Shown here: positions 704 to 63,556 of the stretch, in pieces | Layout of the letters: each line of letters begins with the position of its first letter | Position numbering within the stretch: the first letter of the stretch is position 1 | Source: Petrosia ficiformis | Lineage: Eukaryota; Porifera; Demospongiae; Haplosclerida; Petrosiidae | Length of the DNA: 64,000 bases | Direction: 5' to 3' | NCBI GenBank assembly: GCA_947044365.1 | Contig: OX345636.1 | Coordinates: 9,506,001 to 9,570,000 of the forward strand | The notes under the pieces: generated by a model | The model's input: the letters and a program-made list of their open reading frames with translations, nothing else | Told to the model about the DNA's origin: nothing | Database searches by the model: none | Program-made: the position numbers and the translations under genes

Positions 704-1359
704 TTGTTTTATCTCAAAGATCAGCAAAGACATTGGAGAGGGGGAAGCACGGCCTATTACAAAAGAGGCAGCAGAGACCGCCAGTATTTCAGGAGGAATA
801 CAAATTTCCAAAGACAAACCCAAAGTCTCCCACAGAACAGAGGGAAGAACTGCGGCAATTTTCCTCAAATAAAAAATTTGAAGAATACAAAGTCAATCAA
901 CTTGCACCTATGGGGATAGTTCAGGTACATTAGTAGCTAGGAGGCTACAATATCATTTAACCAACTGGAAGTTGGTGACAAAGGACAGGTGTATATTAAA
1001 CAGTCAAAAGTTATTGCATAGATCTAATATCAGAACCCTTTCAGACAAAAATAACTACCCTTCCTAGATTCAATCAGGATCAATCACAATCGATCCATCA
1101 GGAAATATAAGAATTATTAAGCAAGGGTGCAGTTCAGAAATTCTGTAACCACAAGACGGGTTTACTCTAATCTGTTCCTAGTACCGAAAAAGGATGGGGG
1201 GCAGAGACCTGTGATACATTTGAAAGCTCTAAACCAGTTTGTTCAAACACAACACTTCAAGGTGGAAGAAATCCATACCTTGAAGGCTTGACTTGACATA
1301 TTTTACAACCCCTATTAATCAGATCATAGTTAATATCTCACGTTTGTCTTTCAAGAAAA

Positions 1360-1690
1360 ATGTTCAGTTTCAATTGCTTTTCCTTTGGTCTCTCATCAGC
1401 TCTATGGGTCTTTATCAAGACCCTGAAACCTGTATCAGCCCTCCTACGAGAGTTAGGTGTACGTATGGTTGTCTACATAGACGACATATTAGTGCTGGCG
1501 GGGTCCAAACAGTTAATAGAAGACCAAGTATCAGGACTAGTTTATTTTTTGGAATGTTTGGGATTCATGATCAACAAGAAAAAATCAATCTTAGAGCCAA
1601 CTCAATCACTGGATTTCCTTGGAGTGGTAGTAGATACAACATCAATGGAATTAAAACTACCTGGGGAAAGATTTGCTCAGAAGTGAACAG
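1360..1690 (+). pseudogene. DIRS reverse transcriptase fragment
   Basis: This frame includes VVYIDDILVLAG, the metal-binding YxDD box of reverse transcriptases, followed by LGFMINKKKS and LDFLGVVVD, the usual RT motif order. The frame is lost at about 1686 and the element continues in an overlapping frame, so this is a broken fragment and not a gene. Confidence 0.75.
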
Positions 1691-14200: not shown

Positions 14201-14527
14201 CAGAGGAAGGAGATAAAAAAGAAGAACCCAAACAAGAAGAGCCCGAACAAGAAGAACCCAAACCAGAAGAATCCAAACAGGAAGAACCCAAACAGGAAGA
14301 ACCCAAACAGGAGGAACCCAAACAGGAAGAACCCAAACAGGAAGAACCCAAACAGGAAGAACCCAAACAGGAGGAACCCAAACAGGAAGAACCCAAACAG
14401 GAAGAACCCAAACAAGATGGAGATATGAAACCTGAAGAGAATGTAGCTCCACAAACTGAGGGAGAAGAACAAAAAGAGGACGAAGTTACTCCAAAGGAAA
14501 AGCCACAACGAGCACCCATCTCCATAT
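11291..14527 (+). CDS. PLC exons 1-2: acidic N-terminal extension with QEEPK repeats
   Basis: Exon 1 (11291-11387) starts [15 protein letters not shown]. Exon 2 (14156-14527) encodes about ten EEPKQ pentapeptides (residues about 55-120) and then more Glu/Lys-rich sequence. The region is predicted to be disordered. Typical PLC-delta proteins have no such N-terminal extension; PRIP proteins have a long, disordered one. The start is set by the first ATG after the divergent promoter. Confidence 0.85.
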
Positions 14528-43639: not shown

Positions 43640-44484
43640 CAAGCAACATTCTATGATTCTCAGAGTGCATGATAGCGCCCACTTGACATGGTAGCTTCAA
43701 AGTATTACTGGCCAGGATTATCTAAAGATGTCCAACTCTATGTACGTTGTTTGTGTGACTCTATTATATTATACTGGAGTATTCCCCTTATTTTATGTTG
43801 TTTCAACAGAGAATGCGACTCCCAATTGATAATGAAATTATGCCAATTGATCAACTGCGAAGAGATGATACAACTAGTATTGACCAAGAGATAGACCAGC
43901 TAATGGATGTGCGAAGCAAAGTATTTAAATCAGCCGAACTAAACATTCTCTCTAAACATTCTCTCTGTGCAGAAATCACAGAAAGAGACTTATGACAGGA
44001 AACACGAGGTGCAAGTGCTATATCAGAAGGAACAGAAATTCTTTTAGAGAATACTTATCAGAAACAAAGGAAAGGTGGCAAAATGGAACCACTGTGGTTA
44101 GGACCATTCCGTATCAACAGATGTTTAGGGAAAGGTTTGTATGAGTTGAAAAACGTGAATGGGGAAGTCATGAAAAAGAAAGCGAATATCAATCGCTTAA
44201 AATTGTACAAACGAAAACAAAACATTTCCTCCACACTACCAGGAAATGAACCTTCAGTAAGCAACGACTCTCCTCTGACAACCCATATTGTAGATAGCTG
44301 CCTTCAAATGGATGTACCACCAGTAAACAACAGTCTCATAACAAATACCACCTTAACACTTATAGACAAGTTGGAGAGCTTATTGTTTGACAGCAGTTTG
44401 ATGCGCTTGTGGAGAACAGGAGCATTTGAGGAGCTTTATATGCCTGAGGAAGATATTGATGTTGATGTAAGTTTGTATGCATAA
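43640..44484 (+). pseudogene. Decayed Ty3/gypsy-type integrase region
   Basis: At 43688 the frame reads MVASKYYWPGLSKDVQLYVR, the zinc-binding integrase N-terminal pattern. At about 43985-44075 a frameshifted QKETYDRKHE and ENTYQKQRKGGK segment follows. At 44083 comes PLWLGPFRINRCLGKGLYEL with KKKANINRLKLY, a typical integrase C-terminal module. The catalytic core between them is absent and frames break, so the element is dead. The open frame continues to 44484 with sequence I do not recognise. Confidence 0.65.
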
Positions 44485-44599
44485 TTATGCATGTGTAGTA
44501 TAATTAAGTTTTCATCTATTATTAATCTATTATTAATTATTATGTTGTCAACAAAAGTGCCAATAATATTTATAATTTAAGTGTTCAAATTTTATTTTT

Positions 44600-45000
44600 C
44601 AGCTTACTTAACCTTTATAAAGAAAAAGATCACCATGCCCTCAGCAAGGATGTTGATGTTGCCATTTGGCAAGACTATAGAGCGTATAAGTGTCTAGATC
44701 CAGTTGTGGATGGAACTGACTTTATCGTAATTAATAACCAGCAACATGATGAATTTGATGAGTTCAAGAAAACAGAGATTATGTCATACATCAGCTACCT
44801 CAAAATGAATGAAATTCTACAGCTTTATCTCCAACATAGACCACACCTAGTAGCATCAGTTATAACAAGATATGAACAAACTTACCTTCAGCTTTCGAGT
44901 ACACAAGATGCAAATGGGTGTACAAACTGAGGGACCAATTTGTAGCCAAAGGAGCAGAAGTGTTCAAAGCTGAGGTGGAAGAAGTAAAGCAGGTATATAT
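44600..45000 (+). pseudogene. Coding-like continuation of the retroelement/OTU unit
   Basis: Frames at 44600-44930 read like protein (KDVDVAIWQDYRAYKCLDPV; EFDEFKKTEIMSYISYLKMN) but end in stops, with a donor-like GTATAT near 44993. No family was recognised. Position suggests it belonged with the flanking integrase and CXXC-OTU pieces. Confidence 0.4.
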
Positions 45001-45358
45001 TATAAAAGTAAAACAAAATAATTAATTTATTTATAGCAATTATGCAATACAGAATGATGAACCTCAAGCCACAGCTTTAACCTCATTAGAAGATAAGGTT
45101 TGTTGACTTGGCAAAAAAAAGTATGAAATATTTATAATTGTTTTAGGTAAACAATGACAAACAAATCTCACCATTATTATCATCATCACCTGAGGTATAA
45201 TTATAATTATGCTCCTATGCTCTTAAAATCATGTACTAAACACCATGTAGGCTCTCAAAAGAACGAAGTGCAAGCTAGTTGGGAAAGAAACAACATCGAC
45301 ATCAGGTATAGTGTTGTGGCCAAACAATTATATCATCTATAGAAATCTATAATTTCTC

Positions 45359-45943
45359 TTGAAAGGTGCTAAACGTAAAAGATGTGGACAGTGTAGTGGG
45401 TGCAAACAGAATGATTCTGGAGAATGTCTTTTCTGTAAAGATAAACCTAAATTTGGTGGTGAAGGTAAAAAGAAGCAGTGTTGTGTATTAAGGAAGTGCC
45501 AGGCTTTGGCTAGTTCTACATATCCACTACCATCCCTTAATCATACAATTCCATCCTCGTTCAAGGTTTTAACCCAGGAAACACCACCTACATCAAGTTT
45601 GTCAGCAATTGGGCGTGCTGTGAATAAAATAAAAGCAGATGGTAATTGTTTTTTCCGTGCAGTATCTTTCCTCATAGGTGGTTCTGAGAACTACCATCTT
45701 GAGATTCACAATTTGATTATTCAATTTGAAGAGATGAACCAAGGGATATTTGAAACCTACCTACTACCATTAACAAACAAATCTACTTTTGAAGAGCATT
45801 TACAGCTCTTACATAATCCTACTTCCTAGTCAACCCAGACAGAAGTGCTTGCAGTAGCTACATATTTCAGAGTTCCCGTGTTTTATTATGTTTTGCAGTA
45901 TGAAGAGTATGTTTGGGGATGTTTCAAGCCACTAACTCATTGA
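45359..45943 (+). pseudogene. CXXC zinc finger - OTU protease coding remnant
   Basis: After an AG at 45364 the frame begins AKRKRCGQCSGC, then ECLFCKDKPKFGG, then KKKQCCVLRKC, a CXXC zinc finger with the KFGG box (unmethylated-CpG-binding type). About 55 residues later is KADGNCFFRAVSFLIGG, the OTU catalytic Asp/Cys motif. The OTU frame hits TAG at 45827-45829 and then continues in the same frame with TQTEVLAVATYFRVPVFYYV, the next conserved OTU block, until TGA near 45943. The stop inside the domain makes it a pseudogene or demands readthrough. Confidence 0.7.
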
Positions 45944-46621
45944 AACATGAAACATCCTCTAAACGAACTTGATGATAATCTTTTAAGCACATTATAAGCA
46001 CTTTTAAGCGCAAAGGCTTGAAGTGCTTTATACAAATTTAATCAACACTGGTAATCAGTATAATGTGTGTTTATAAATTGTACAAAGGCCCAATTCAGCA
46101 GTTCTATTCACACTAATTCAGCTGCTATTTCACATGTGGAAATAATTCTTTTGACAGCTGCTATTTTCACGTGTGGAGATAATTCTTTTGACAGCTGCTT
46201 TTTTCACACTTTGAGACTGCTCTTTTCACTGAGAAAAAGCTACCTACTGTTTTAATAACCCTCAGTCTTTGGAAGGCATCTTTTAAGGCCATATGTAAAC
46301 ACTGTGATCAGACCATATCTGGATCTACTAAAGTTTCAACTAATTAGATGAAGCCATACTATATTACATGATATATACTACAGTGTATATAGATCTATAT
46401 GCACTAATATAATTGGCAGAGAAATTTTGGGTGGTTGGCATGACTACCAGTGTACAGTCATTTAGCATTTGACCAATCTAACTCCTCCCAAACTGTTTGT
46501 ATTACTAGTAGGGCGAGTGTAATACTCATAATTAATAAACAAATCTGCAAAAAACAAATTACCTCAAAAAAAAAATCTATCTTGAAAAAAAAATGAAGCT
46601 CGAGTTTTTTTAATTAAATAT

Positions 46622-47508
46622 TTATTTTAACTGTTTAATAAGGGTTCTAATTCCTGTACATATCTCAGAGATTGTTGGTTTACTATACATGTAGTAGTTT
46701 TTAACTGTCATTGGCAAACGCAAATCTAGGACAAACACGTGCCATGTGTTCCCGTCAGACAAAATAGCTAACATAGACTGATACGGATACGGAAAACTGG
46801 ACTTGGTATCCTCCTTCCGAGCATAGTACACCTCTAAAAAGAGCTGTGCAAGCTCTTTCTCTAAATAGCCAATACCTTCACTAATAACTGGTTTAAGCTC
46901 GATGACAACGACAGTTCGTTGGTTAATTAATCGTATGATGATGTAATCAGTTTTCTTGTTTTTTCGGGCATCTTCTATGACCTCCTTGACAATCGAAAAA
47001 ATCTTTATACAGTAGGTATTATCAGAGGGTGATTGCAAGTGGTTGACTATGTGGGCAAGAATATTACCACATATTAGAACGGTAAATGCTTCGTTTTGCG
47101 CTAGAAGTCTTCTTTTAATGATGTGATTTACACTTGTAAATTCTTTCACATCCTCGGTAGTACATATGGAGGTGGAGGAGGAGGAAGGAGGCTCTTCGGC
47201 TTGCAGCATTACCATTGTTGTAAAATTTTGTACAATTCCTCTGCTAAATAATTCACTCCATTTGACAGAGGATGGATTTAAGTCTATCTCCATTTTCTTC
47301 CTTTTTGGGAGAGGTGAATATTTTGTTAATTTCTCAATCTGCTTATCGATAGTTTCGAGTTCCTTATTGTGTTCCTTTTCTTTCTTTTCTCTACTTTCCA
47401 GTAAAGACTGCAGAGTTTCCTAAAAGAAAAAATGTTTAATGAACAATCATAGTTTATTCCTAATCCCATTTAATTACATACTTCTTGTTCGTCCTCCGAA
47501 CTGCTCAT
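46622..47508 (-). CDS. PD-(D/E)XK-like domain protein, ~274 aa
   Basis: Coding exons 47508-47482 (MSSSEDEQE) and 47419-46622 join in phase 0. The intron has GTATGT and TTTTAG ends. The N-terminal half of exon 2 is a charged coiled-coil-like helix (LESREKKEKEHNKELETIDK) with a PLPKRKK basic patch. The C-terminal ~170 residues contain KKTDYIIIRLINQRTVVVIE followed by LKP. The D...ELK pattern across two beta strands, followed by a helix with EKELAQLFLEVYYA, is the usual PD-(D/E)XK nuclease core (inference). A 5'UTR exon part precedes the ATG (acceptor at 47527-47528). Upstream lies an array of exon-like units. Family and function are not recognised beyond this. Confidence 0.65.
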
Positions 47509-47581
47509 GTTAACAAGTAAAGCAAACTGAAAAGAAACAAACCATCAGTATTGTTAGTTATATTGCCAAACAAAGTAAAGC

Positions 47582-47582
<1 letters not shown>

Positions 47583-47658
<76 letters not shown>

Positions 47659-48012
47659 ATATGTACATCAATCTACATACACACACAAATATAGAGATTA
47701 CATACAACATTACATGTATGTGTATACATGTATATTTACCTCTTCTCCAACTATTAATTTTGTTGAAGGTACAAATATTTTGATTCCAGTCAGTTTTATA
47801 ACTAACATTCACAATACCACTAGAATGAGAGAGAGAGAGAGGAACATATGTACATCAATCTACATACACACACAAATATAGAGATTACATACAACATTAC
47901 ATGTATGTGTATACATGTATATTTACCTCTTCTCCAACTATTAATTTTGTTGAAGGTACAAATATTTTGATTCCAGTCAGTTTTATAACTTTAACATTCA
48001 CAATACCACTAG

Positions 48013-48057
<45 letters not shown>

Positions 48058-48224
48058 CATATGTACATCAATCTACATACACACACAAATATAGAGATTA
48101 CATACAACATTACATGTATGTGTATACATGTATATTTACCTCTTCTCCAACTATTAATTTTGTTGAAGGTACAAATATTTTGATTCCAGTCAGTTTTATA
48201 ACTTAACATTCACAATACCACTAG

Positions 48225-48271
<47 letters not shown>

Positions 48272-48455
48272 CATATGTACATCAATCTACATACACACAC
48301 AAATATAGAGATTACATACAACATTACATGTATGTGTATACATGTATATTTACCTCTTCTCCAACTATTAATTTTGTTGAAGGTACAAATATTTTGATTC
48401 CAGTCAGTTTTATAACTTTAACATTCACAATACCACTAGAATATAAGAGAGAGAG
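47583..48455 (-). repeat. Four tandem exon-like units with (CT)n acceptors
   Basis: A ~200-bp unit occurs four times. On the minus strand each unit has a (CT)n run, CATTCTAG acceptor (ATATTCTAG in the 48354 copy), an ~82-nt exon-like block starting TGGTATTGTGAATGTTA, a GAAGAG/GTAAAT donor, and a TATACATGTA tail. Exon-like blocks are 48354-48435 (82 nt), 48140-48220 (81), 47927-48008 (82) and 47740-47819 (80). Spliced to the exon at 47526, the 82-nt form leaves an open frame into the downstream MSSSEDEQE protein but offers no ATG, so they are best read as alternative 5'UTR exons. Joining two copies gives a stop (TAA). Confidence 0.75.
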
Positions 48456-48669
48456 AGAGAGTTTGAGAGAGATAGTAAAACAGACTATGATATGCATATA
48501 CAAGAAAATTAGAAAACAAATTAGAAACCAAAAAATAGCTATAAAGTAACTATGAGAGGATATACTGTTGTAGAGATACCCACTAACGATAGAGAGAGTG
48601 ATTATGATACGCATGCATAAGACAATTGGAAAACTGAGGATTCTATACAGTAACTATAACACACAAGGA

Positions 48670-48785
48670 ACTAACCAAAGTCTTCAGAGAGACTGCTCAG
48701 ACTGGTAGTGCTTGAGAGATTCAGAAAGAGACGACCTCTTCAATAACAACGCACGACGTACACCTCTTTATATGTCAACGTGCAA
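48670..48785 (-). promoter_or_regulatory. Candidate TATA promoter and first exon of the 46.6-kb gene
   Basis: On the minus strand CATATAAAGAGG (about 48771-48760) is a TATA-like box. About 90 bp downstream an exon-like segment ends ...GAAGACTTTG followed by GTTAGT at about 48675. No ATG lies in it, consistent with a noncoding first exon. This is position-based inference. Confidence 0.35.
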
Positions 48786-49254
48786 CGGAAGTATCATCAT
48801 GTGAGTAATTGACCAATGAACACATCACACCTTATTTAATTATTATTTAATTAATTAATATTTATTATTATTATTTATTTTTTGGATTTAATTAATAAAA
48901 TTAATTATAGACAATGCTACAGCCTTATATATTATATCTTATACCCATACATGGCCAAGTAGATCACTACATTGAATCTTTATAATTGCACACAATTCGC
49001 AATTTTTATATTGATAATTTGGTCAAAGAATGTCCTATCAGGCACACCACATTGACATATAAAATTGCAGCTGGCCTGAATTTTTAAATGGCTAGTAGGA
49101 GTTGCTAGGTGTGAGGGTTTAAATTAGTATTGAAATGATACTAATGATATTCACACAGTATCCATCAAATTTCATGCAATCAGATGTGTTATAACTTTGT
49201 AAGGGCAACTGTGGACAATCTGAATTATATGTACACTGATCAGATTGTTTCGAC
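48786..49254. other. AT-rich intergenic spacer
   Basis: TTAATTATTTATT-rich sequence between the two minus-strand genes. No further features recognised apart from the probable 3'UTR of the transposase-PHD-OTU gene adjacent to 49255. Confidence 0.5.
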
Positions 49255-52200
49255 CTATTGGGTCTCATCAGCACAGTGTATCCCAAATTCACAATACAGC
49301 TTGTAGTCTGACTTAGGCATGCAGTGCTCGTTACAAAAGAGGGGGGAAAACTTCAGCCAAGCACGACTGGACCAATTGTCAGAGTATGTACAAACATCAA
49401 TCTGACACAGGGTAGCAAAAGCTCTAATCTCGCGGTCAGTTCCCCATCCACGCTGATCCAGCTTCTTTTCCTTGATGTAACCGGTCATACTCTTAATAGG
49501 CTCATAAAGGTTTGCCTCAAGAGTGTCACCTGCAAAGCAGTCCTTACAGAAACGGTAAGCATTATCTTTGTGTGTCATGAAATTAACAATTGCTTGACGA
49601 ACAGCTTGGTGGTTAGATTCAGTTCCTGTAACTTCTTTAGAAAAAGCTCTGAATAGGCAGTTGTCATCGCCCCGAACACTGTCACGAATGTGGGGCTCGA
49701 TATCTCTACAGGGAATTTTCTGGACTCGTTGAGACCGAGCAGTGAGTTCACAACGAGACAATTTAGCAATAACATATCTGGCAGCACTTTTCCACTCTTC
49801 AGTGGGCAGTGGGCCGGTCACAGTTACTGTGGCTGGGCTTTCGCCTATGCATTCTACACATGAATCGTCGATACTGAGCTCTTGTGAACAGTCATCGCAG
49901 TACCATTTACCTTCGGGAGCTTCAGTGATTCCCACACACTCAAAGTGAAACCACGTGCAATTTTGTCCGTCACATTCCACCATATTCCCTTCATCTCTTC
50001 CTCGGCAGATGCAGTATAGGTCCTCTTCGGGAGAAGAAACGTCTGGACTGAAGGATTTGGCCAGTACTCTCGCACTCTGTGTGGTACTGCACACAGTTGA
50101 GAGTTTGTTCTTCTTGGCTGTGGGAGACGGGGATACTTTAAGACTGCTTCGTTTCCTGTCATTAAAAGGGGTCGAATTTGGAGGACGTACAGGAGTCGAA
50201 TCGACACACAAGTCATCGATATTGAGCTCTTGTGAACAGTCATCGCAGTACCATTTACCTTCGGGAGCTTCAGTGATCCCCACACACTCAAAGTGAAACC
50301 ACTGAAACATGCAATTATGTCCGTCACATTCCACCATATCCCCCTTCTCTTTTCCTCGGCAAAAGCAGTATAGGTCCTCTTCGGGAGAAGAAGAGTCTTG
50401 ACTGAAGGATTCGGCCAGTACTCTCGCACTCTGTGTGGTACTGCACGGAGTTGAGAGTTTGCTCTTCTTGGCTGTGGGAAACGGGGATACTTTAAGACTG
50501 CTTCGTTTCCTGTCTTTAAAAGGGGTCGAACTTGGAGGACGTACAGGCGTCGAAGCAGCAGGTTTCACTTGATACAGCAAATGAGGATTCAAGGGGCAAG
50601 CTTTCTTGTGAGCTCTGCAGCCTCTGCCTTCAGCACCACAAGTACATTGTGTTTCGTCATCGCTGTCATATATCATACTGTCCTCGAGATAGTCTCCTTC
50701 GAGGCTCGAGTCACTAAAGGTCGATTCGTCGTCACTTAACACCGTATGTGTATTTGCATCATCAGAACATTGATATTTGGCAGTGTAAACAACATCTCCT
50801 TTGTCACAAACCAAGTCCTCTGAATGGTCGATACTCGATACGTTACTGTACTTGGTGTTAAGAGGACAGTCCCTGTGGGTGGACCGGCTGTGAGATGTTG
50901 ATCCACACTTGCACAATATGTTTATTTGTGTGGCACCACCTTTACTCTTCTTGGGGGCTTTGGAATCCGTATCTTTGGTCTCGCCATACGTGTCACCTCC
51001 GTGTTTCTTTGACCACTCACGACGCTCTGTCGCATCTCTCACTCGTAACTTCAACAGCTGTATTCTCCTTTTCTTAACCTTCTCTTGTTTTGCTCTGCCC
51101 AACTGCTGTCTTCTTTTTATGTTGGCTGTCGTCACAGCCTCTTGGATACCTTCATACACTGGAAGATTCAGACGTTTATACAGGTCCGGTATCCAGTGAT
51201 ACTTTGGACCTCGTTTCTCGTACATGTAAGTCATGTTTGACTGCAACAGGGCCAAATTAGTGGAAACCTCGTAGTGAAGCCTCTCCAGGCTGATGTCCTT
51301 TGACCTGAACCTGATGAATACGTTGTGCGAGGCTTCCAACCAATTGGAGTGGCCTCTTTTCAGCACGGGATGAACGAGGCTGTCAGCCATTGAGGCTCTA
51401 TAGTCACACTCAATTTCATAAAGGAGAGAGTGAAACGCACACGTGAGCCCGTACCGCGTAGTGTAATCTTTTCCTTCACACACAAAGTTTTCCTTATCGG
51501 CACAATTGCCACAGCTACACACTTTGAGAGGATGAAAATCACAGTGTTCTGTTGTTGGCTCTGCTCCCTCTTCCATCACTTCCCACTCGTGCTCGTCACG
51601 CACATGTCTGGGTAGAACTCTCAGCCTTTTCGCAAATTCTTCAGCAGACTTAGAGTCTGTCAGAATGTAAGAAAAGTTATTACGTGCTCTCATGATAAAA
51701 GCATCAGTAATACAACCACAACCTTGGCTGTGGCGATTAGGACAGTGGCAGCGTGCTCCATTTATTAGAGGGAACCTGTCTTCATGCTTTCTAATCAAAT
51801 CTATCGAAGGTGCCTTCATCTTGGAGTAATTTTCCAGAGCTTTTAAGTGATTTTTGCCGGCATGGCCACCACAGATCATAATTTTGCATTCAGGAAAGCA
51901 TTCCGCTACTGCTTTTGCAGAAGATGAATCTGAATCTTGCCAATGGACAGCGAGTTTCATCCCTTCCTCTCTAGCTCGATGCATAACCTCTCGCGCTGCA
52001 AATCCTTCCATGGATTTAGATGTTCCTTTATATAGCTCTCCTTCTACTATATTGTCCCTACCACGTTGGCACAAGTGTTTGTAATACAGCAATGCTCCAT
52101 TATAGTAGTTACGAACACTGAATGTGCCATTTTTGGAGTGGTAACCACGTGTCATCCATGCTGCGTCTGCACTTGTTACTGCCTGCTTCCACGAGCCAAG

Positions 52201-55200
52201 AGTGTGTTCATCCATTGTCTTCATCTCTTCTTTAGCTTCCTCACACATCTCGTCAACCATCTCCTTCACTACAGGGTACATTCTTGTGACGGTTGAGTAA
52301 AATTTATCCATACGGACGGCATCAAGTCCAAGGGACAGCTTTAGTACTTTACAGTAGGTTGCATGCATACAGCCCGATACAATAAAACCTACTTGAATGG
52401 CTGCACCTATTTCGCTACTGGTAAGTAACTCACTTTTCAGTGAGCTTTCAAAACACACAGTTGAAATATCACAGCCATCACATCCATAATAAACCTTAAC
52501 TGCACCCCCCAAACCCTTTGTATCAAATGACAAAGGAACTAATTGTCCTTTACAACCAGGTGTTACACAGTGGCGAATTTCGTTCGTCATTTTAATAAAT
52601 GTATCTACTTCAGTAAGGCTTCCAACAAAAAGCTTTTTTGGCAGTGTTATTGGCTTGATATTTTTTACCCAATTTCTTTGTGGTGTTGGGAGGTACAGTG
52701 AATCTGTGTTTTCACTTACAAACAATGTATCACGATCCTCTTCTTCATCTTGAAATACTGCCTGTAGGGTAAAATAAACCTGCATGTATAATTACATGTA
52801 TATAACAGATAGACACACCTCTGATAAAGTCTCTTCTAACGGTGAAGGAATACCATCTTTCTATACAAATGAAGTGAAGAGCATTAGTATCAAAGTATTA
52901 ATAGTCTTGTGTAGCCAGACCCTCCCCTACATATGAGATATGGATCTGGTATGTAGCATAAGAAGTACAGTAAAATTTTAAAATTCACTACAACAAAATT
53001 ATGTGTAGGTATTATATATGTATAACTACAAAATTAGCAAACCCTCACAACACTTTAGAAGCACTTGAAATCAAATACAATTGAGGTTACAGCATGGTCA
53101 CTGGCTCAATCTTTCTGTCACATTCTAGCTCAGTTTTCATGCATATTAGTGTTATATACATGTATGCATTGTATGTTATAATTATACAAATACGTACATG
53201 TACATGTATGCAATGGAACCTTCACACCATTGGGACCAAGTAATCATAATTATAGAGATTGTCCTCATTTCAGGGGTGAAGTTGTATAATAAAGGACGTC
53301 TAAATGTCATTAATACGGGTGTGTACTTATTCCAGAGAGTCCTGAATAGAGAGGTTCCACTATATACTTTATGCCGTGAAAATTACAGGAAGGAAAAATT
53401 TAGCTTGGTAAAAAATAATACTGTTCAGGGATCAAAAATCGACATACACAAAAAAGAACAAGAAGGATAATTATATGAAATTGGTGCAGGTAAGATGATC
53501 AGTTAAACACATTTCTGAGGTCATGGTGAACATCAAGTATTAATGAAAATAAAAGGAGACTTGATTGCTTCCTACACATAATACATGTATGTATATGCAA
53601 AAAGATACACTTACATGTTTATTGTCTCTGTTACATATAATTGCAGAAACATCACCCTATAAAAGCGTAAACTTGTAAATGTAAATACATGTATGTAGAT
53701 AAAGTACATGTACAGATTTGATAACTTGTTTGTAACAGCTCATATCACACAAAAGCTCTTTGTTTTTTGAATATTCCAGGTCAGTAATTCTGATGAGTAC
53801 ACTTAAATTCAGACTTGCAAAGGAAGTTTCGTGTTATTGTTGTCTGTTCTGTTCTCTGCAAGCCGAGAAAGACAGTAATATTCCAAAATTTGGAAGATTA
53901 ATTATGTTGCAAATAAGAAATACTAGATAATGCAACAACAAACAAGCAAAAAGAAAGGTATGGCTCAGTGTAAACAAATGCAGTCATGGGCATGTGTTGG
54001 GCTTACTATACTGAATAGCCAATAATTATCTCTTAAACTAGTGGTCATATACCCCACCAGTGAACACTGCAGAATTATATTCTATGGCAATGAATGCAAT
54101 GGTGCAAGAATTTGAAATACATTACGTACACCCTGTCCATGAAAGAGTATGTTTGAGATTTCACCATATTGTTCTCCGTTAGCTAACTACATGTATTTAG
54201 CAACGACCATGACCTTCTGTAATCCATATGATTTGCTTCGGCCTTGTTTTTCAATATCACTTGTTCAATCATTCCCTCCCCCCCCCCATGATGGAATGTA
54301 CAAATGTAGGTACTCTGCAAGAATGTATACATGTGTGTGTATGTGTACCTCTTTCTTTTTCTTAGTTGTTCCTGAATTATTCTAAATAAAAAAAGTTCAT
54401 TATTAATTATAGCATAAAATATCAACTTGGCATGGTAGTTTCAGTTGTTTCACAAAGGGGTGTGTCATAAGTAATACAATTCCTGAAAGGCATTAGGTAT
54501 CGTGCTTAATTGAATTGCATTTTATAGAGCATTTGTTTAAACGATGTCCAACCAGCACGAGTAAAAATTCACACAATCAAAATTACATTTAGCAGTTTTT
54601 CAAGTTTATTTCTTTGTGAGTTATGGTTACAAGAAACAGCATATTCTATACTACTACAGCATGTGTTTTATTCTTTATACCTCCAACTATACAGAAGAAT
54701 CTGGAACAAGAAGGGTTGCATAGTAGCCAGATAGGAATGTATAAGTCTCTCTGCAAGTTTATTGAAAATGGTTGCATAACTAGGAGGATCAGGCCATCCG
54801 TTAAAGATGACAGATGAAGTAAGAGGATTTTGAAGCCCAGGATTATGAAACGTTCGCCTATACCAAATACATGTACATTCATTAAATACTTACTGCTAAT
54901 GGAAAGTTAACATTTTTGTGTCACATAGTGTGTGCATATATATTATATATTATATAAATATACATGTAATATATTACATCACTCATGACACATAGACATA
55001 CATGTTTATCCGCTGATTTCGAAATCTCTTTCACAGTTTCTTCCTGTAAGAATAAAGCGACTTTGTATAAAATACTTAAATAAATAACGTATTTATGAGT
55101 ATCACAGTAGGGATACATATACATGTAGATGGATAAAGAGATGTGACGTACATGTAGTCTTTGTTTAGTAAAATTTCGACATCAGTAGTTTTTATGGCCC

Positions 55201-55237
55201 GTAGGGCCATCCCTATAATTGCTTTCCACAGGGTTTA

Positions 55238-55273
<36 letters not shown>

Positions 55274-58200
55274 TTGTGTCACTTGCGCGACTATGCGTTG
55301 TATACGTAGTTAAGGAAGTTGCGTCATTCCCGGGGGCTCGGTCAATTAATGGGCGTGGCGCTTAAAAGAACGTGCGTTTGAGCTACAGACCAGCCAGGAA
55401 GATTCAGAAAGGATGTAAAACTGCTAATAACTGTTGTATATAGCAGAGAAAGAATCTTTAACAAGTAAGTATGATAAGTTGTTGAGTTTCAGACACGAGG
55501 AAGTCATCATTTAGAACCTTGAAGGAGTACCTCAGTCAGTTCATCAGACACCTGTGTATTTAGACTGCAATTAGGCTTACACTTACGTCTTCAGGCCCCA
55601 GGAGTACACAGAAAGGTAGAGACACTAGTGCCATCAGCAATGCTTAATACACAGTCATCACAAAGCAAATATAGGGATGTTTTTTTCTCTATATACACTT
55701 GTTTACTTTACTAAAGGCCTACTAATTACCATGCCACTGTGGTCAGGGTTCACTGCAGCCTGAAAGTCTGGAAACATGTGCATGTTGAATAGCACAATAT
55801 TATATATGGAAATCCAACTCTATTTTATATATATATATACAGTGGTGTGGAAACAGCCAGTCATGCAGGACTTTGTTCGATAAATCTAGTGAATGTCCGG
55901 TAAATTGAAACAGAGCTGTATACAAAGTATATGGGGAGCAGGACAAGAGTGGTGAAAATAGGTCAAAATGTCCGGTAATTGGCTCAATGTTTCCACACTT
56001 CTGTATATACATGTATATATACATATATATATATATACACAACTACACTAATTAATGTCTGTATCACAGAAAAAACACAATGTAAATCGAAAATAATTCA
56101 TGTTACAATTAATAAATGTGAAAAAAAATTTGATGTGCAAAATGTATGTGGTTTACTCTACCGACGATTAATGTTTTGCTTTACATTCCTAAATTAATAT
56201 CCACGTTGTAGCACACAAGACTGACACAAAGACTGTCATGTAACATGCATATTAGCAGCATTGTATTCTATCATTAAGATAATAATTACTGCCCTATTGT
56301 GCCAGATAAATCACTCATCAAACAGTTTAATATACATGTAGTTCTCACTCAATGTTCTAAAGTGGCTCAACAAAAGTGGCAACTTGGTTTAGAATGGGTA
56401 TCCTACAAGGTAGTTGGAAATATAGAATAGCAGTTTTTTATGGCCCGTAGGGCCATCCCTATGATTGCTTTCCCACGGGTTCGAACTATATATATATATT
56501 TATATGTTTGTGTCACTTACGCGAGTATGCGTTGTATACGTAGTTAAGGAAGTTACATTATTCCCGGGGCTCGGTCAATTAATGGGCGTGGCGCGTAAAA
56601 GAACGCGCGCTCAAGCTCTACAGATAAGCAGAAAGAAAGCAGTGTAGCTTACGTAGAAAATGGAACTAATAGCTAGCTATTCTACCTGAAATATATTCTT
56701 AAAGTTCTACAAGGTTCTTTAAAAGGTAAACAGAGTAGATAATCAAAATAATAACTATAATAGGCTGATGTGTTTCAGGCATCAGTTAGCCATGATTACT
56801 GAATGCTGGACACCACAAAGCAATCATAGGGATACTTTTTTCTCTATATATCTTGTTTATAACTATCCCTTCAGTACGCTACAGGTATGGAAAGCCCGGT
56901 AACACAGAGCAAGAAACGTCTCCGCAGCCTTTATATTGGAATTATAATTTCGATTATAATGTCACGTGTTCAATTTCTGCACATGTGCAAACATTAAACA
57001 AATATCTGGATCCTGAAAGTACATTAAAATATAAAGCAAAATACAGAGAACTATATTTATGTTATTAATCAAGAAATTGCTTGATGTATTAAATTTAGGG
57101 ACTCTAAGAAGAGTCCCCCCAAAAGAATAATCACCAAAGCATGGGCTCAACAACAAATTGCATAATGACAATATTATTTACAGGCAGATACATGTATGTA
57201 CATGACCATGTACAATTGTATATTGTATGTACACGTATATGTATGTAGCTAACATGTACATGTATAAATATATACGTGCAGTACAAGCTACATGAACATT
57301 TGTACATTGTACATACATGTATATGTAGCTAACATGTATACATGCACATGAATATTTATACATTGTACATTGTACATGTACACGTGTAGTTCAAGTGTAT
57401 GTGCAGTACAACATGAATATTTGTAGTTTTATGGACCACGGGGCTATCCCTATATGGTTACTTTCAAAGCCGCTAATAATTTTATATTAATTTTATTTAC
57501 ATGTACATGTACATGCATGTGTAACATATATACATGATACATGTTATTGCACATATACATGTACATGACATTGTATGTACATTAATTAAAGCTCTGTTAT
57601 TCCAGGGGGTTCGGTCAATTAATGGCCGTATATACATGTACATGTATGTAGCACATAAAGAAATGTACAGTAGGGCTACAATCGCTACAACCAACAGGAC
57701 TGTATAGTGTATACATTACATGAAAATTAGCAAAAGGCTTAGAAACGATTAACAAATAAACAGCAGCTAAATGGGTTATAAAATTCATAAAACAAAATAC
57801 TAAAGCAGCCACCCTGGCTTAGAAAAGTAACAATCAGTCACAATACACACATAGTACATGTAACAGCAGAAACCAGTAATACTAAAGCAGCCACCCTGGC
57901 TTAGAAAAGTAACACATAGTAAGTAACTATGTGTATAGACTGGATTAATATTGACATGATTATTTATATAATTAGTACCATGTGGGATGGATTAACATGT
58001 ATCTACTAGACTGTCCACATGTGTACCACATGATATAGAACATTCAATTAGTACCATGTGGGATGGATTTACATGTATCTAGAATTTTCTAGACTGTCCA
58101 CATGTGTACCACATGATATAGACCATTCTGGAAACTTTAGCTATTTAAGTGATTTCTGTAGAGAGGTTGATTTCTGTAAGAGATAGTTGTTGCTATTGTT

Positions 58201-60615
58201 ACTTTGTTCGTTATAATATTAATATTCTAAATAGTCAAAGTCTTTAAGAAGGATCTATCAGTGTATGTAAAATTTGCGACTCAGTTTATTTTCTCTCTCA
58301 CCATCTACATGTATCTATGATCTTTGTTTGTGTTTAACATGAATCTTACATGTTAGTTTCTAGCAAATAACATGTTAACGAAAAGCGGACTTGCAAAAAA
58401 ACTAGCTATACAGTACTTATATACATGTATGTAGGGTGGAAGTGGTGTGTAATTTCATTGCTAAGGTACTATCCTAATCTTGTTTCTGTGTTTTTCAGTT
58501 TCGATACCCCTATATCCTTATTTATTTTATTCTTGTACAATAACAACTACACCAAACAGTAGTGGAATGCCTGTACATGTATTGTACATTGTATATATGT
58601 ATGTTACTATATTATAGATTTCTGTGTCTAATTATAATTATGTTTTACAAACTGGCTATTTTACATGTTCATAATGTGTTGAATTATTAACTTGAAAATT
58701 ATGAAATTGCTGCTTACAAAAAAAGGAAAGCACTTATCACGCAAATCTTGACGAAGATTTGTTGTATTTCTGTCTTGGTACATGTACTTTTTTGTATCAA
58801 CCATGGCTGTCTTTTAACAACTCAACTTTCCAGCAAAGCAATCAAGTTACAATCTACAATTTTATAAAATGTGAGAACTAGAGGTGACAAGATTCATATG
58901 AAACACCTGGCATTAACAGTCCTGCGAATATTTACATTCTACAAACATAACTGCCATAATGTCCTTGCATGCAGTAATTTGCTCAGTCATTGTCCTGACA
59001 TGCACGGATAATGGCAGATGGCCGCCTGTTATTTCTGACTCTGAATTATCATTTCTGTGTCACTTACTGTGTGCATATATACATGTATATATATAATATA
59101 ATCATATATTATATAAATATATACATGCGATATGTTACATCACACATGACACATAGATATACATGTTTATCCACTGATTTCGGAGTCTCTTTCGAAGTTA
59201 CTTCCTGTAAGAATAAAGTGACTTAGTATAAAATACATATATAAGTAACGTATTTATGAGTATCACAGTAGGGATACATATACATGTAGATGGATAAAGA
59301 GATGTGATGTAGTCTTTAATTATTGTAGTTTAGTAAAATTTCGTCATCGGTAATTTTTTATGGCCCGTAGGGCCATCCCTATGATTGTTTTCCCACGGGT
59401 TCGATGTATGTTTATATATATATATTCTTGTGTCACCTACGCGAGTATGCGTTGTATACGCAGTTAAGGAAGTTACATCATTCCCGGGGGCTCGGTCAAT
59501 TAATGGGCGTGGCGCGAAAAAGAACGCGCGATCAAGCTCTACACACCAGCAGAAAGAAAGCTGTGTAGCTTACGTAGACACTGGAACTAATAGCTAGCTA
59601 TTCTACCTGAAATGTATTCTTAAAGTTCTACAAGGTTCTATAAAAGGTAAACAGAGTATATAATCAAAATAATAACTATAATAGGCTGTTGTGTTTCGGG
59701 CATGATAAAGTCAGCCATGATTACTGAATGCTGGACACCATAAAGCAATCATAGGGATACTTTTTTCTCTATATACACTTGTTTAACTTTACTAAAGGCC
59801 TACTAATTACCATGCCACTGTGGGCAGGGTTCACTGCAGCCTGAAAGCCTGGAAACAGTAGCCATGATGCTCACAATATGAAGTACAATTTGTTTACCAG
59901 TAGTTATGACAATGTCATTGCTACACATAAAACTACATGTATATAGATACTACTCTAGTGTGCATATCAGAAGCAGGTTTCTTAAAATTTGAAGCATGGA
60001 AACCATTTTCTATCCTGACATAACATAGTAAAAATATAATTTGATTGGATAAACTGTTGGTAACAGGGCACAACTACTACAATTAGGCTAAGCAGACCAG
60101 ACCATTCCTCCTACAAAAATTTGTGTGTAGATGGAGTTATACTTGTATTTATTGAGAAACGTTAGGCTCTAAACCCCTCCCTTCTATGACCAAGGTGCTT
60201 AGCAGGCATGCCTGCATAGACCCCTCGGCCATTGGCCACAAGAGGCAGGAAACCCTTCCAAAAATTCAAAGGTATAGGTTCTTTGTCTATTTCGTCATCA
60301 GTTCTTTTCTACTTTACTAAAAGACTACTAATTACCTTGCCACATTAAAGAGGGTGTGGTAGCAAAGCTTTGAAGTTTTTTTTACAGGTGAAGTTACACA
60401 AGGTGCACTTACACTGTATGTACTAAGCAGCATCTCAGCTGTGAGTTGCACTTATACATGTACTTGCGACTAGTGTGAATTTGGCTACATGTATATGCAA
60501 ACTAAATTTGTGTCCAAATTACCATGCCTTATGTTGTATTCATACACTGTACATACAAACATAAAAACTAATATGTACACGCAATGTTATATTATATATA
60601 TATATATTATATATA

Positions 60616-60672
<57 letters not shown>

Positions 60673-61191
60673 TAATAATTTATATATATATAATATATAT
60701 TAGGGCTGGAACGAAGGTTGCAAAACAACATTCAAAGCAATAAAAACAATATTCAAAGGTTCGCATGTATTTTTATCAACTATTATTGCTTTATAACAAG
60801 CACTAGTCTTGTTCCTGTCACTGTTTCTACTTGGATTCAGCATTGCTGGACTGAGAAATGAGACAAAGGCAGCCAACAACACAGCCTCAACTTTACAGGA
60901 ACACACCCACATTCTTCACTAGAAGTACACATATTCAAAATATCAAAGCGAGTGTGGCAAAGCTTTGAAGGTAGAAATTCAGCTAAAAATGTGCAGCAAA
61001 CAATCAGAGGTTCAAACATTCAAACCTTTTACCCCACCCTCATATATGTATATAAACATATAATGTCATATATACAATGTATATACATACATTGGTTTTA
61101 TAGGAATAATATTTAATTACATATGTACCTTTTCTTTCTTTTGATGTCTAGCTTCATTTAAATGCCTCATCTGTTTTTTCGTTAGTCCCAT
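49255..61191 (-). CDS. Mutator-like transposase - PHD - PHD - OTU fusion protein, ~1,242-1,256 aa
   Basis: Exons (minus): 61191-61129 (MGLTKKQMRHLNEARHQKK...), 59204-59163 and/or 55043-55002, 54381-54349, 53656-53615, 52860-52819, 52761-49255. All are phase 0 with GT donors and AG acceptors. The last exon alone encodes 1,168 residues: a Cys-rich module (CVTPGCKGQ; GCDGCD), then SADAAWMTRGYHS, YKGTSKSMEG and HWQDSDSSSAKA with CGGHAGKNH, which fit a Mutator-like DDE transposase catalytic region. Further Cys/His-rich knots and a basic coiled coil follow, then two ING-like PHD fingers, then an OTU cysteine-protease domain (RGDDNCLFRAFSKEV). PHDs of this type read H3K4 methylation and OTUs cleave ubiquitin chains (family knowledge). 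The long frame is intact. No terminal repeats were found, and the scattered small exons argue for a chimeric host gene rather than a bare transposon (inference). Confidence 0.75.
49265..49730 (-). CDS. OTU domain of the fusion protein
   Basis: RGDDNCLFRAFSKEVTG carries the Asp and catalytic Cys of OTU proteases. Downstream are QAVRQAIVNFM, the GWGTDREIRAFA segment typical of the second OTU block, and a C-terminal FGIHC near the expected catalytic His. The frame is uninterrupted to the TAG at 49255-49257. Confidence 0.8.
49860..50560 (-). repeat. ~350-bp tandem duplication encoding two PHD fingers
   Basis: Two direct copies about 348-354 bp apart each encode TPVRPP(N/S)STPF, a basic Ser-rich spacer, ARVLA(E/K)SF, then a PHD with YC(F/I)CRG, MVECDG, WFHFECVGITEAPEGKWYC and DDCSQEL. 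Copy 1 (upstream in the protein) has CMFQWFHF where copy 2 has CTWFHF, a 6-bp difference inside the zinc-binding loop. Confidence 0.9.
54900..55790 (-). repeat. Segmental duplication, copy A (exon 2b + MITE)
   Basis: Matches 59040-59870 over its whole length: a TATA-rich block, the 42-nt exon (55002-55043), GTATTTATGAGTATCACAGT, a GGCC-head MITE, and the tail CTACTAATTACCATGCCACT through GCAGCCTGAAAG. The exon here encodes EETVKEISKSADKH. Confidence 0.85.
55188..55697 (+). mobile_element. GGCC-head MITE in duplication copy A
   Basis: Head GGCCCGTAGGGCC, a (TA)n tract, GTGTCACTTGCGCGACTATG and TTAATGGGCGTGGCG. The middle then diverges from other copies until AAGCAAATATAGGGAT at the end, suggesting an internal replacement or insertion. 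Confidence 0.75.
55840..56003. mobile_element. 164-bp MITE, CAGTGGTGTGGAAACA ends, copy 2
   Basis: CAGTGGTGTGGAAACAGCCA at the left and TGTTTCCACACTTCTG at the right, flanked by TA on both sides. Inverted relative to 34955-35118 with the same length. The TA duplication places it with Tc1/mariner-type MITEs. Confidence 0.85.
56434..56850 (+). mobile_element. GGCC-head MITE, full-length
   Basis: One of the best copies: GGCCCGTAGGGCC head, ATCCCTATGATTGCTTTCCC, TAATGGGCGTGGCGCGTAAA, TACCTGAAATATATTCTTAA, and the end GCTGGACACCACAAAGCAAT with CATAGGGAT, complementary to the start. Confidence 0.85.
56880..57020 (+). repeat. Single monomer of the 58-bp satellite with flank
   Basis: ATGTGCAAACATTAAACAAA with TATCTGGATCCTGAAAG corresponds to one monomer. 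The sequence before it (GGTAACACAGAGCAAGA; AATTTCGATT) parallels the sequence before the array at 30800-30886. Confidence 0.65.
57427..57660 (+). repeat. Diverged partial GGCC-head MITE
   Basis: TTTTATGGACCACGGGGCTATCCCTATATG head and GGGTTCGGTCAATTAATGGC block. The interior is replaced by (ACATGT)n. Confidence 0.65.
57758..57915. repeat. Two-copy direct repeat
   Basis: AATACTAAAGCAGCCACCCT followed by GGCTTAGAAAAGTAACA occurs at about 57797 and 57877. Confidence 0.8.
57970..58135. repeat. Two-copy tandem repeat with internal dyad
   Basis: AATTAGTACCATGTGGGATG through GTCCACATGTGTACCACATG and ATATAGA occurs twice (about 57971 and 58047). Each unit carries CATGTGG and CCACATG dyads. Confidence 0.8.
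59040..59875 (-). repeat. Segmental duplication, copy B (exon 2a + MITE)
   Basis: The second copy of the unit at 54900-55790. Its exon (59163-59204) encodes EVTSKETPKSVDKH, six changes in 14 residues relative to copy A, with donor GTATAT instead of GTATGT. The MITE is in the same place, so it was present before duplication. Confidence 0.85.
59354..59778 (+). mobile_element. GGCC-head MITE in duplication copy B
   Basis: Full-length copy: head, TAATGGGCGTGGCGCGAAAA, CTGAAATGTATTCTTAAAGT, and end GCTGGACACCATAAAGCAAT with CATAGGGAT. Confidence 0.85.
60592..60700. repeat. (TA)n microsatellite
   Basis: Long nearly pure TATATA tract with a few TTATAA interruptions, abutting the hAT-like element at 60701. 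Confidence 0.9.
60701..61041. mobile_element. hAT-like MITE, second copy
   Basis: Starts TAGGGCTGGAACGAAGGTTG and is collinear with 23036-23436, sharing ACTAGTCTTGTTCCTGTCAC and GGCAGCCAACAACACAGCCTC. The right end is diverged (TTTTACCCCACCCT). Lies in intron 1 of the transposase-PHD-OTU gene. Confidence 0.65.
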
Positions 61192-63130
61192 TTTTCTTCA
61201 GAAAAAAGGTTAATCAATAATAATAATAATTATACTTTTTGTAATTCAACACAATCATGTGACAATGTGATTTTGTTGTCACATGACATTGACAACAAAA
61301 TTTAACCATTTATTTTAGACATGCAAATTTTAGTTAATTAATAAAATAAAGGGTTCTTGAACAATTCTGAAAGCATATACTCAGAGATAAATTTCGAAAA
61401 TCAAAAATTTTAATAGATGTTATGGAAAGGGTTGCTAAATAAATCTTTTTGTTGTCTTATTGCAGTAGTTTGAAGTACTATTTCGGGAATCATTTTATTG
61501 AACTTTAAAGAGTCAGAGATAAAAAGTGACAATTTTGATGAAGAAAATGTCTTTTTTGCTGTACATGTATATACTCAAAAAGGAATTTTAAGCTGATTGA
61601 ATATCAAAAGTAGAAGGAAATCATGAAGAATCATCCAAAAAAGATGAAGCTGTTGGACAGTAATCATAATTTATCAATACTGAACAAATATATATGTGTT
61701 CGCCTCACATTGATTCAGTGAACACAGTATGTCTTTCCCATCATATTGCAGAGGGGTTGGGTCTGGTTATATGAGACTAGGAGCAGATTGTGTAATGCAC
61801 GTAGGGGTCTGAGGCATGTTGTCCCATACACACACAGAAAATTTTGGATTCCAGGTTCTAGAGGCATCCATGATTACAGCAGCATAGCATTACTATTATT
61901 ACAGAACACAGGGCTTGCAAATTTTACACCAACCCCCATGAACAGCTTATTACAACATCAAACAAAAGGGCTACATAATAATATATGTCTATATAGTCCT
62001 CTCAGAGGCTCTGATTGTATAATGTTAGGTGTTTATATGTACTATATTTTACCTTTTTCCGCTTTGTTGTAGAGTCTTGACAAAAAAGTTCTATAATCCT
62101 TATAATATACTTATCACAAGGATACCGCATATAATAACTCTAATCTCCTCCCGGATCCCACAGTAATTCGTTCATTTAGAAATAAAGTGTAATAATTCGT
62201 CACCACTATTATCTAAGTCTATTCTACCGATAGACGTGCAAAATTTATGTAAATACCATTTTTAATACCGATAGACATACACATTTTTGTAAAAATATTA
62301 TTATAAAATGGAGGATTCTTGAACAACAACGCATCCAAGAACACTCTTTCTAATTCAAGGTAAATAAAAGTAAATTTCGCAGATACGAAGTACAAACAAG
62401 ATACATTAGCAAACTATCTCAAATATAATAGAGAGTTTTTATCCTAAAAATGTAAACCCACTGATAAATTCCATTGTCAGAAATCTGAAAATTCAATAAA
62501 TTGTTACAACAAAAGTAAAGACTTATTTTTTAAAATCTCTCTATTTTGTAAATTGTATTTTTGCAGTAGCTTGATATCTGAATTTCTATGTCAATACAAT
62601 GATTCTTCATGACTTTATTACACTTCAAAGTTTGCAACATCGGAAACTTCTTTTGCAAATAACTCAAAAACTGAATGAAATTTTGATAGAGAGTATGTTT
62701 ATGCAAATATTCTTTGTAAGGTATAGAATTGAACCCTGCGGTAAAAAAAGAAATTGAGACTAACACCCACGCTCATTAGGTTACTAAGTTAATTGTCGTT
62801 CCTTCTCACTTCAAACTTTTGTATTACAAAAATTCTCACTACGACTGCATTGTCTCCAGCTCTGATTCCTGTGTACCAAATGACTTCCCTCTGGTAGAAG
62901 AAAAGGTTGTAGATGTTATAATATTTGATGAATAACATACCAAACTAAGTTCCCACTCAAGTGGTAGATAATAATAATAGTCAAAGTTCATTCAAATAAA
63001 ATTAATATAATTATGCGCTCGTTTAGAGGGTGTGGCTGGCTAGTCATTGGCCTGGCGCGATGGCTAGTGTAGCTATCAACCAGCAACAACACTAGCTGAA
63101 AGACATAACTAGTCTGAACACACCAAGATA
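61192..63130. other. Intergenic region, no gene recognised
   Basis: AT-rich. A short inverted repeat TTTTGTTGTCACATG/CATGACATTGACAACAAAA lies at about 61272-61302. A 108-residue frame at 61746-62072 shows no motif. The promoter of the minus-strand fusion gene should lie just right of 61191. Confidence 0.45.
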
Positions 63131-63284
63131 ATTATAATTGTATGTGCTACACTTCTACTGCTGCATTTATTGTAGTAAGATACGTAATAAACACAAAATT
63201 AATAACAGCCAGCATGGTTTGAAGGGGGTGCCCATTTTACACAGTGGGGTCCCTGTTCGACGTTCGAATAGCAAAATGCGTAAT

Positions 63285-63337
63285 AAAATAGGGACCTGGG
63301 TCCCTATTTTACCGTTAATATGGGGACCCGGGTCCCC
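63285..63337. promoter_or_regulatory. Paired GGGACCYGGGTCCC palindromes upstream of the CARD-like gene
   Basis: A 26-bp near-palindrome (63285-63310, AAAATAGGGACCTGGGTCCC plus TATTTT) and a perfect 16-bp one (63322-63337, GGGGACCCGGGTCCCC) lie 11 bp apart in a GC-rich island. The island includes GGCGCGCGCGCTCCCGG and sits about 220-270 bp before the next gene's coding start. Could be a promoter element or a transposon relic. Confidence 0.45.
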
Positions 63338-63556
63338 AAATGTACGGAATTTTATGACACCGGGTTACCTTCCGCTCCATCTCCGGCGCGCGCGCTCCCG
63401 GTCCCGTGATCCATGGCCCCACCTCCGTTAATTTCATTTAAATTTGCACGCAGGGACTAAATTCCAGAGAGCCTGTGTTCGTACCTCTGGTAAGAGAAAT
63501 GTAACAGCAGTTCATAACTATTTCGCATCCCTCTTATTCCGATTGTAGATTGTGCT

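What the first reader, a model, noticed from the sequence alone, without database searches (positions are those of the whole stretch)
49255..61191. Intact chimera of a DDE transposase, two H3K4-reader-like PHD fingers and an OTU protease
One 1,168-residue exon encodes all modules without a stop, and small phase-0 exons supply a lysine-rich N-terminus. A transposase that also reads chromatin and removes ubiquitin could target insertion or protect its own protein. If domesticated, it would be a new type of chromatin factor. I know of no described protein with this exact order, though I could not search.
Basis: partly seen in the sequence, partly recalled or inferred. Interest (0 to 1): 0.8.

Follow-up and report, generated by a model that had tools for sequence, protein, structure and literature searches.

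The report
Mobile transposon with chromatin-reading transposase
This is a damaged copy of a large, recently mobile DNA transposon (probably of a sponge) whose transposase also carries histone-reading PHD fingers and a ubiquitin-removing domain; relatives carry a SUMO-removing domain instead, which hints that such transposons make use of protein-tag removal on chromatin.

Summary
The chimera is real: one exon (49258-52761, minus strand, 1,168 codons) encodes a DDE transposase (PF20700, E 1.3e-15; best fold match ISCth4), two ING-like PHD fingers and an OTU domain. But the OTU is not intact: its end, with the presumed catalytic histidine, is lost here and kept in sister copies. And it is no domesticated gene: it lies in a multicopy transposon, 45987-62788, which includes the upstream exon and sits between two TTAA inside an older integrase/CXXC/OTU element whose empty site exists elsewhere. 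Forty places hold its 5' region; 27 compared flanks are unlike each other; TTAA precedes 14 of 27 clean ends. The DDE region evolves under constraint (dN/dS 0.13-0.21 against diverged copies). Relatives pair the same transposase with OTU or with Ulp1; the tree needs at least three changes of the OTU label. PHD+isopeptidase transposases are published for Ginger1 and Mutator, so this is a new variant of a known kind. The roles of PHD and OTU are inferred.

The parts
45987..62788 (-). Element A: the mobile unit as it stands in the window (16,802 bp, internally deleted)
   Evidence: Copies share its 5' end at 62794/62795 (first bases AATTAA are target); element-A matches stop at 45987 where element B begins; junctions and empty site
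62789..62792 (.). TTAA at the 5' side of element A
45983..45986 (.). TTAA at the 3' side of element A (target duplication, or the element's own)
61129..61191 (-). Putative first coding exon, MGLTKKQMRHLNEARHQKKEK, followed by GTACAT
   Evidence: no transcript evidence
49258..52761 (-). Main exon: DDE transposase, PHD1, PHD2, truncated OTU
51586..52599 (-). PF20700 match, residues 65-402 of the frame; D209, D286/D288, C307xxH310 and E486 (the last at 51334-51336, outside the match) are conserved
50221..50379 (-). PHD finger 1, ING-like
49870..50028 (-). PHD finger 2, ING-like, two residues shorter before WFHF
49295..49674 (-). OTU domain without its C-terminal HYD block
49209..49294 (-). Hammerhead-like ribozyme (below gathering score) at the start of the 3' region joined to the OTU
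47583..48475 (-). Minisatellite of about 210-bp units with (CT)n, found after the same segment in four other fetched copies
46622..47419 (-). Second frame, 265 codons, in element A; only weak Pfam matches (TPR_DOCK E 0.00053, HSDR_N E 0.045, both below cut-off)
43680..45986 (+). Element B, one part: CXXC finger and OTU-like start at 45353-45829; interrupted by element A
62795..63350 (+). Element B, the part beyond element A (91.7% over 556 columns to L084)

Best explanation
It is a damaged copy of a recently active, multicopy DDE DNA transposon. The transposase is an RNase H-fold enzyme of the IS256/Mutator/Kolobok kind fused to two ING-type PHD fingers and an OTU isopeptidase, and at least one small upstream exon moves with it. 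It inserts at TTAA or close variants. Shown: the modules, the copies, the 5' terminus, the insertion into element B, the loss of the OTU end in this copy, constraint on the frame. Inferred: the DDE part cuts and joins DNA; the PHD fingers dock the complex on H3K4me3 chromatin, so that insertion favours open chromatin; the OTU strips ubiquitin from the transposase or from chromatin or repair proteins at the site; the Ulp1-type sisters do the same with SUMO. In this copy the OTU is very probably dead. The confidence given is for the transposon reading; for the chromatin and ubiquitin roles I would say about 0.5.
Against: No transcript or transposition seen. No TIR found; the 3' terminus of other copies is unresolved and they continue past the window's 3' end. 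TTAA is missing or altered at 13 of 27 ends. OTU constraint is uneven: dN/dS 0.18 and 0.27 for L017 and L020 but 0.79 for L022, whose frame shifts near its end. Overall dN/dS against near-identical copies is 0.44-0.51 on 19-24 synonymous changes. L011 and L012 look like one insertion copied with its neighbourhood.
Confidence: 0.9

Rival explanations
1. The transposase is an ordinary Mutator-like element: the TTAA at both ends of the window copy is chance or microhomology at a secondary 3' end, and full copies make 8-11 bp duplications.
For: PF20700 is named Mutator-like; ISCth4 is the best fold match; other copies continue past the window's 3' end, some through TGTGC-TTAA; 13 of 27 5' ends lack exact TTAA.
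Against: In the window the two junctions share TTAA only, so no 8-11 bp duplication is present; TTAA precedes half of the clean ends; k-mer searches for a longer duplication in 7 copies gave nothing consistent.
Confidence: 0.3
2. PHD and OTU are passengers of no use for transposition.
For: High divergence of the linker (dN/dS 0.38-0.42); one OTU comparison near 0.8; 5 of 40 chosen members show neither protease motif, and some listed relatives show no PHD by Pfam.
Against: Protease motifs in 35 of 40 chosen members, the window's label set by hand; PHD matches in 26 of 48 scanned; exchange between OTU and Ulp1; OTU dN/dS 0.18-0.27 for L017 and L020.
Confidence: 0.2
3. A domesticated chromatin factor derived from a transposase.
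For: One long open frame with chromatin-type modules and an upstream exon; purifying selection.
Against: Many copies with different flanks and a recent insertion into element B; this copy has lost the OTU end. Selection on copies of one transposon family gives the same dN/dS.
Confidence: 0.02

Closest known systems
Ginger1 transposases with OTU or Ulp1, and Mutator transposases with Ulp1 (Bao et al. 2010, PMC2836005; passages seen)
   Same: DDE transposase with a C-terminal isopeptidase; Ginger1-9_HM has Ulp1 and PHD; the legend of Figure 1e aligns Ulp1 and PHD domains of Ginger1 and Mutator transposases
   Different: Ginger1 has a Gypsy-integrase core; I saw no PHD+OTU combination in the passages; two PHD fingers here
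Rehavkus (in PMC6446971; passages seen)
   Same: PHD finger in the transposase, minisatellite in the 3' part
   Different: 9-bp duplications and TIRs of 26-400 bp are given for Rehavkus; here TTAA and no TIR found; insects and annelids only are given as hosts
Kolobok (PMC9587614; Background section read)
   Different: Kolobok ends are 5'-RR and YY-3', here C(C/T)T(T/A)G at the 5' end; TTAA here is a preference, not strict
Sponge homologues P0103 and P0104, named by NCBI as uncharacterized proteins of Halichondria panicea
   Same: Same transposase core (48 and 49% identity) with C-terminal PHD
   Different: Ulp1-type protease motif instead of OTU; P0103 shows the Ulp1 only by motif, not by Pfam

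Membership tests
Mutator-like elements (MULE) | Mutator-type DDE transposase | tested here: met
   PF20700 57.7 bits over cut-off 26.5; whole-frame scan did not list it
Mutator-like elements (MULE) | Target duplication of 8-11 bp | tested here: not met
   Window copy: the junctions share TTAA only; true 3' ends of other copies not reached
Mutator-like elements (MULE) | Terminal inverted repeats (some MULEs lack them) | tested here: inconclusive
   None found in the window or fetched tails; 3' termini unresolved
Kolobok | 4-bp TTAA duplication | tested here: inconclusive
   TTAA on both sides in the window; exact TTAA at 14 of 27 5' ends
Kolobok | Ends 5'-RR and YY-3' | tested here: not met
   5' ends begin CTTAG or CCTTG at 27 of 28 examined; window 3' end is ...TGTGC, perhaps not the true end
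Rehavkus | PHD finger in the transposase | tested here: met
Rehavkus | 9-bp target duplication | tested here: not met
   one copy
Ginger1 | Gypsy-type integrase core | tested here: not met
   The core matches PF20700; no integrase family at E<=1 for the whole frame or E<=0.01 for the core
OTU deubiquitinase, active | Catalytic Cys and His both present (triad recalled) | tested here: not met
   GDDNCLFRA present, HYD block lost in the window copy; 7 sister frames keep it
ING-type H3K4me3-binding PHD | ING-like sequence with the aromatic cage (cage positions recalled) | tested here: met
   Alignments to YNG1, ING4, ING3
ING-type H3K4me3-binding PHD | Binding of H3K4me3 | not testable with these tools
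   needs peptide binding
Domesticated host gene | Single, immobile copy without element ends | tested here: not met

The most novel reading that the evidence does not exclude
A separate lineage of very large, gene-carrying animal DNA transposons: an IS256/Mutator-type transposase working at TTAA-like sites, with copies of about 20-55 kb by same-strand pairing of the 5' end with a marker near the 3' region, tails that hold an Hsp70 fragment, a second frame or hammerhead-like segments in some copies, and a transposase that joins a histone reader to an exchangeable isopeptidase (OTU or Ulp1), so that insertion is coupled to removal of ubiquitin or SUMO at H3K4-methylated chromatin.
Probability: 0.3. 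Interest if true: 0.75.

Novelty: new variant of a known kind. Interest (0 to 1): 0.5.

Why it matters
Isopeptidases and PHD fingers are known in several transposons, but what they do in transposition is still a suggestion (PMC2836005, passages). Here one transposase clade often keeps a PHD finger together with an isopeptidase and changes the isopeptidase between OTU and Ulp1. That natural swap separates the shared need, tag removal at chromatin, from the particular tag, and offers related protein pairs for testing insertion-site choice and ubiquitin or SUMO dependence. It also warns that such frames can be taken for chromatin genes of the host.

Tried and rejected
The whole-frame Pfam scan missed the transposase; scanning residues 1-620 found it. 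TIRs hugging the frame: none convincing. Upstream exons by homology to relatives' N-termini: nothing beyond the main exon (one search failed in its tblastn step); only the lysine-rich 61191 exon was recognised, by composition. True 3' terminus and duplications of other copies: no consistent end, because the tails are minisatellite-rich mosaics. My first idea, that a hammerhead retroelement had inserted into the OTU (note), was dropped when its 'insert' turned out to lie downstream of the 5' end on the same strand in other copies too. The many Rfam microRNA matches in the tails are below their gathering scores and look like simple-repeat noise. Literature: nine searches listed no paper that I recognised as describing a PHD+OTU transposase of this clade; the library is open-licence PubMed Central only, and I read passages or one section of four papers. 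Structural neighbours other than those listed are not excluded. Not done: transcript evidence, a tree rooted with outside families, structure of the OTU.
Full report

PHD and OTU. PHD1 and PHD2 are copies of a 118-residue tandem unit. PHD1 aligns to YNG1 and ING4 (1.1e-18, 3.6e-18), PHD2 to ING3 (1.8e-16), keeping the Y, M and W that line the H3K4me3 cage of ING proteins (cage positions recalled). PHD2 lacks two residues before WFHF. The OTU match is weak (19.2 bits, cut-off 23.3) but clear in relatives (best E 7.2e-11). In the alignment of 12 sequences, the six relatives that reach the end finish with NHYDRV, DHYDRV or NHYDHV, whereas the window leaves the family after YKLY and ends after 11 unrelated residues. 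The DNA homology of the copies that reach that far ends at 49295 (49293 in one), and the others go on with the HYD block. With the OTU triad (recalled), this copy's OTU is very probably inactive.

It is a transposon. The own genome (191 Mb, unnamed) gave 55 matches to the frame, counted piece by piece and a lower bound (39 of 307 candidates scored); 9 span residues 1-1167, 8 of them without a stop, the window included. Seven others keep frames of 1,181-1,183 codons ending HYDRVVPSV. In three copies with fetched upstream DNA the homology starts at 62794 or 62795. A search with the first 500 bp gave 42 matches at 40 places, 26 of which reach within 13 bases of the query's end; 14 begin at base 34 or later. 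The 15-base core has 48 matches with up to one mismatch against 0 for the reversed control. I compared 28 of the 5' ends. In 27 (not L063, which lacks the inner motif) no pair of outer flanks was more than 70% alike in an ungapped comparison. In 27 (not L075, which lacks the outer motif) TTAA precedes the element in 14, and 24 are within one mismatch; TTAA makes up 0.7% of tetramers in 100,043 positions of fetched sequence.

The insertion site. Matches to 46250-43500 split at one point: element-A matches run to 45987, and a second family, B, begins at 45986. Two B copies elsewhere (L084, L094) read GGAACRACAA-TTAAAG across that point; the window reads GGAACGACAA-TTAA and then element A, and at the other end ...TAATGTGC-TTAAAAG; 556 columns of B lie beyond the 5' end at 91.7% to L084. 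So A sits inside B with TTAA on both sides. Other A copies go on past this point, some through TGTGC-TTAA, so the second TTAA may be the element's own and the window's 3' end an internal one; a 4-bp duplication is probable, not proved. B has a CXXC finger (E 5.4e-12) and an OTU-like start (Peptidase_C65 E 0.0024, below cut-off; also P0006's OTU by tblastn, 9.1e-08), and an upstream frame with a weak Tf2-1-like SH3 match (E 0.066). I take it for a Ginger- or Gypsy-type unit; that is not tested further.

What happened to this copy. The segment joined to the truncated OTU (49294 downwards) recurs at about 40 places (45 matches). In the window and at 33.03, 24.74 and 60.30 Mb it lies 12.4-13.5 kb from a 5' end on the same strand, and the same minisatellite follows it in the four other copies fetched. 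In the C2 copy the frame and a partial match of the segment are 18 kb apart. I read the window copy as internally deleted. Pairing 5' ends with the marker near 45987 on the same strand, by eye, six copies measure about 20, 31, 43, 48, 49 and 55 kb. I did not read the intervals through, so nested insertions may inflate these lengths. The tail of one copy, with near-identical sequence in others, holds an Hsp70 fragment (PF00012, 90.8 bits).

Selection. Nei-Gojobori counts on 11 frames (L015, L018, L021, L023 and the shorter copies were left out): against L017, L020 and L022 the window gives dN/dS 0.33, 0.32 and 0.33 overall and 0.13, 0.18 and 0.21 in the DDE region; the OTU gives 0.18, 0.27 and 0.79, the last inflated or real, as L022's frame shifts near its end. 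Against the near-identical copies the overall ratio is 0.44-0.51 on 19-24 synonymous changes. L010 differs from L013 and from L014 by one base in the frame, yet their 5' flanks differ, so movement was recent. L011 and L012 share 99.95% of an 8-kb stretch beyond the frame and are probably one insertion copied with its neighbourhood.

The family. Protein searches returned 53 relatives, 49 for the C-terminal part and 158 for the DDE profile, 120 of them listed. Two of the best are named in the sponge Halichondria panicea; that the window is from a sponge is inferred from this. Of 48 members scanned, 26 match PHD, 21 Ulp1 (Peptidase_C48) and 7 OTU at E<=0.01; the window member was the DDE part alone. 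By motif, 40 members chosen by hand, mostly long ones (39 of the 160 proteins held, plus the window, whose label I set), have 9 OTU, 26 Ulp1 and 5 neither. On an IQ-TREE phylogeny of the DDE region the OTU label needs 4 changes, 3 of them forced by well-supported branches; shuffles average 8.3 and none of 500 was as low. The window's OTU clade lies among Ulp1-bearing lineages, other OTU members branch outside them. The root is a midpoint, two end branches are long (P0051, P0137), and three changes may be one gain and two losses. Exchange of the isopeptidase module is the natural reading.

Mechanism. Shown: a mobile, constrained, DDE-type transposase frame with reader and isopeptidase modules. 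Inferred: DNA cutting and joining; docking on H3K4me3; ubiquitin removal from the transposase, histones or repair factors. Bao et al. (PMC2836005, passages) proposed a ubiquitin/SUMO role for such domains in repair after transposition.

Comparison. Ginger1 has OTU or Ulp1, once with PHD, and the legend of that paper's Figure 1e aligns Ulp1 and PHD domains of Ginger1 and Mutator transposases. Rehavkus has a PHD finger, a minisatellite and 9-bp duplications (PMC6446971, passages). Kolobok has TTAA duplications and RR/YY ends (PMC9587614, Background read). Element A shares parts of each but fails the duplication length of MULE and Rehavkus in the one copy tested, and the Kolobok ends, so I file it in none of these; its core is Mutator-type by PF20700. 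Giant eukaryotic transposons are reviewed in PMC6431247 (12 of 22 passages seen; 'PHD' and 'Kolobok' do not occur there). Novelty: new variant of a known kind.

Noticed in passing
43680-45986 and 62795-63350 (+): Element B, into which A inserted: CXXC (CpG-binding type) finger plus OTU-like start, so a second transposon type in the same window pairs a chromatin-related finger with an OTU.
   Followed up: partly
49209-49294 (-); L080-L083: Hammerhead-like ribozyme, RAGATH-1 34.5-34.6 bits and HH9 29.5 bits in all five, below gathering scores of 56.3 and 52; part of the segment also occurs inverted in L095-L099.
   Followed up: partly
L033:1778-2230 (+): Hsp70 fragment (PF00012, 90.8 bits, profile 392-500 of 599) in the tail of element-A copies.
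   Followed up: partly
46622-47419 (-): Second frame of 265 codons in element A with a possible small upstream exon; weak DOCK-TPR and HSDR_N matches; two other nearly full DNA copies at 96%.
   Followed up: partly
own genome C2:5364549-5417524: Four copies of the element's 3' segment on one strand at 17.2-17.7 kb spacing, like a tandem array.
   Followed up: no
1284-2696 (+): Frames that look like a reverse transcriptase/RNase H remnant, perhaps DIRS-type (only a weak RT_RNaseH_2 match, E 0.076).
   Followed up: no
30976-32290: Tandem array with a 58-bp period, seen as repeated chance hits.
   Followed up: no
14124-14534: Frame of 136-219 codons with a PKQEE-type pentapeptide repeat, open on both strands.
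   Followed up: no
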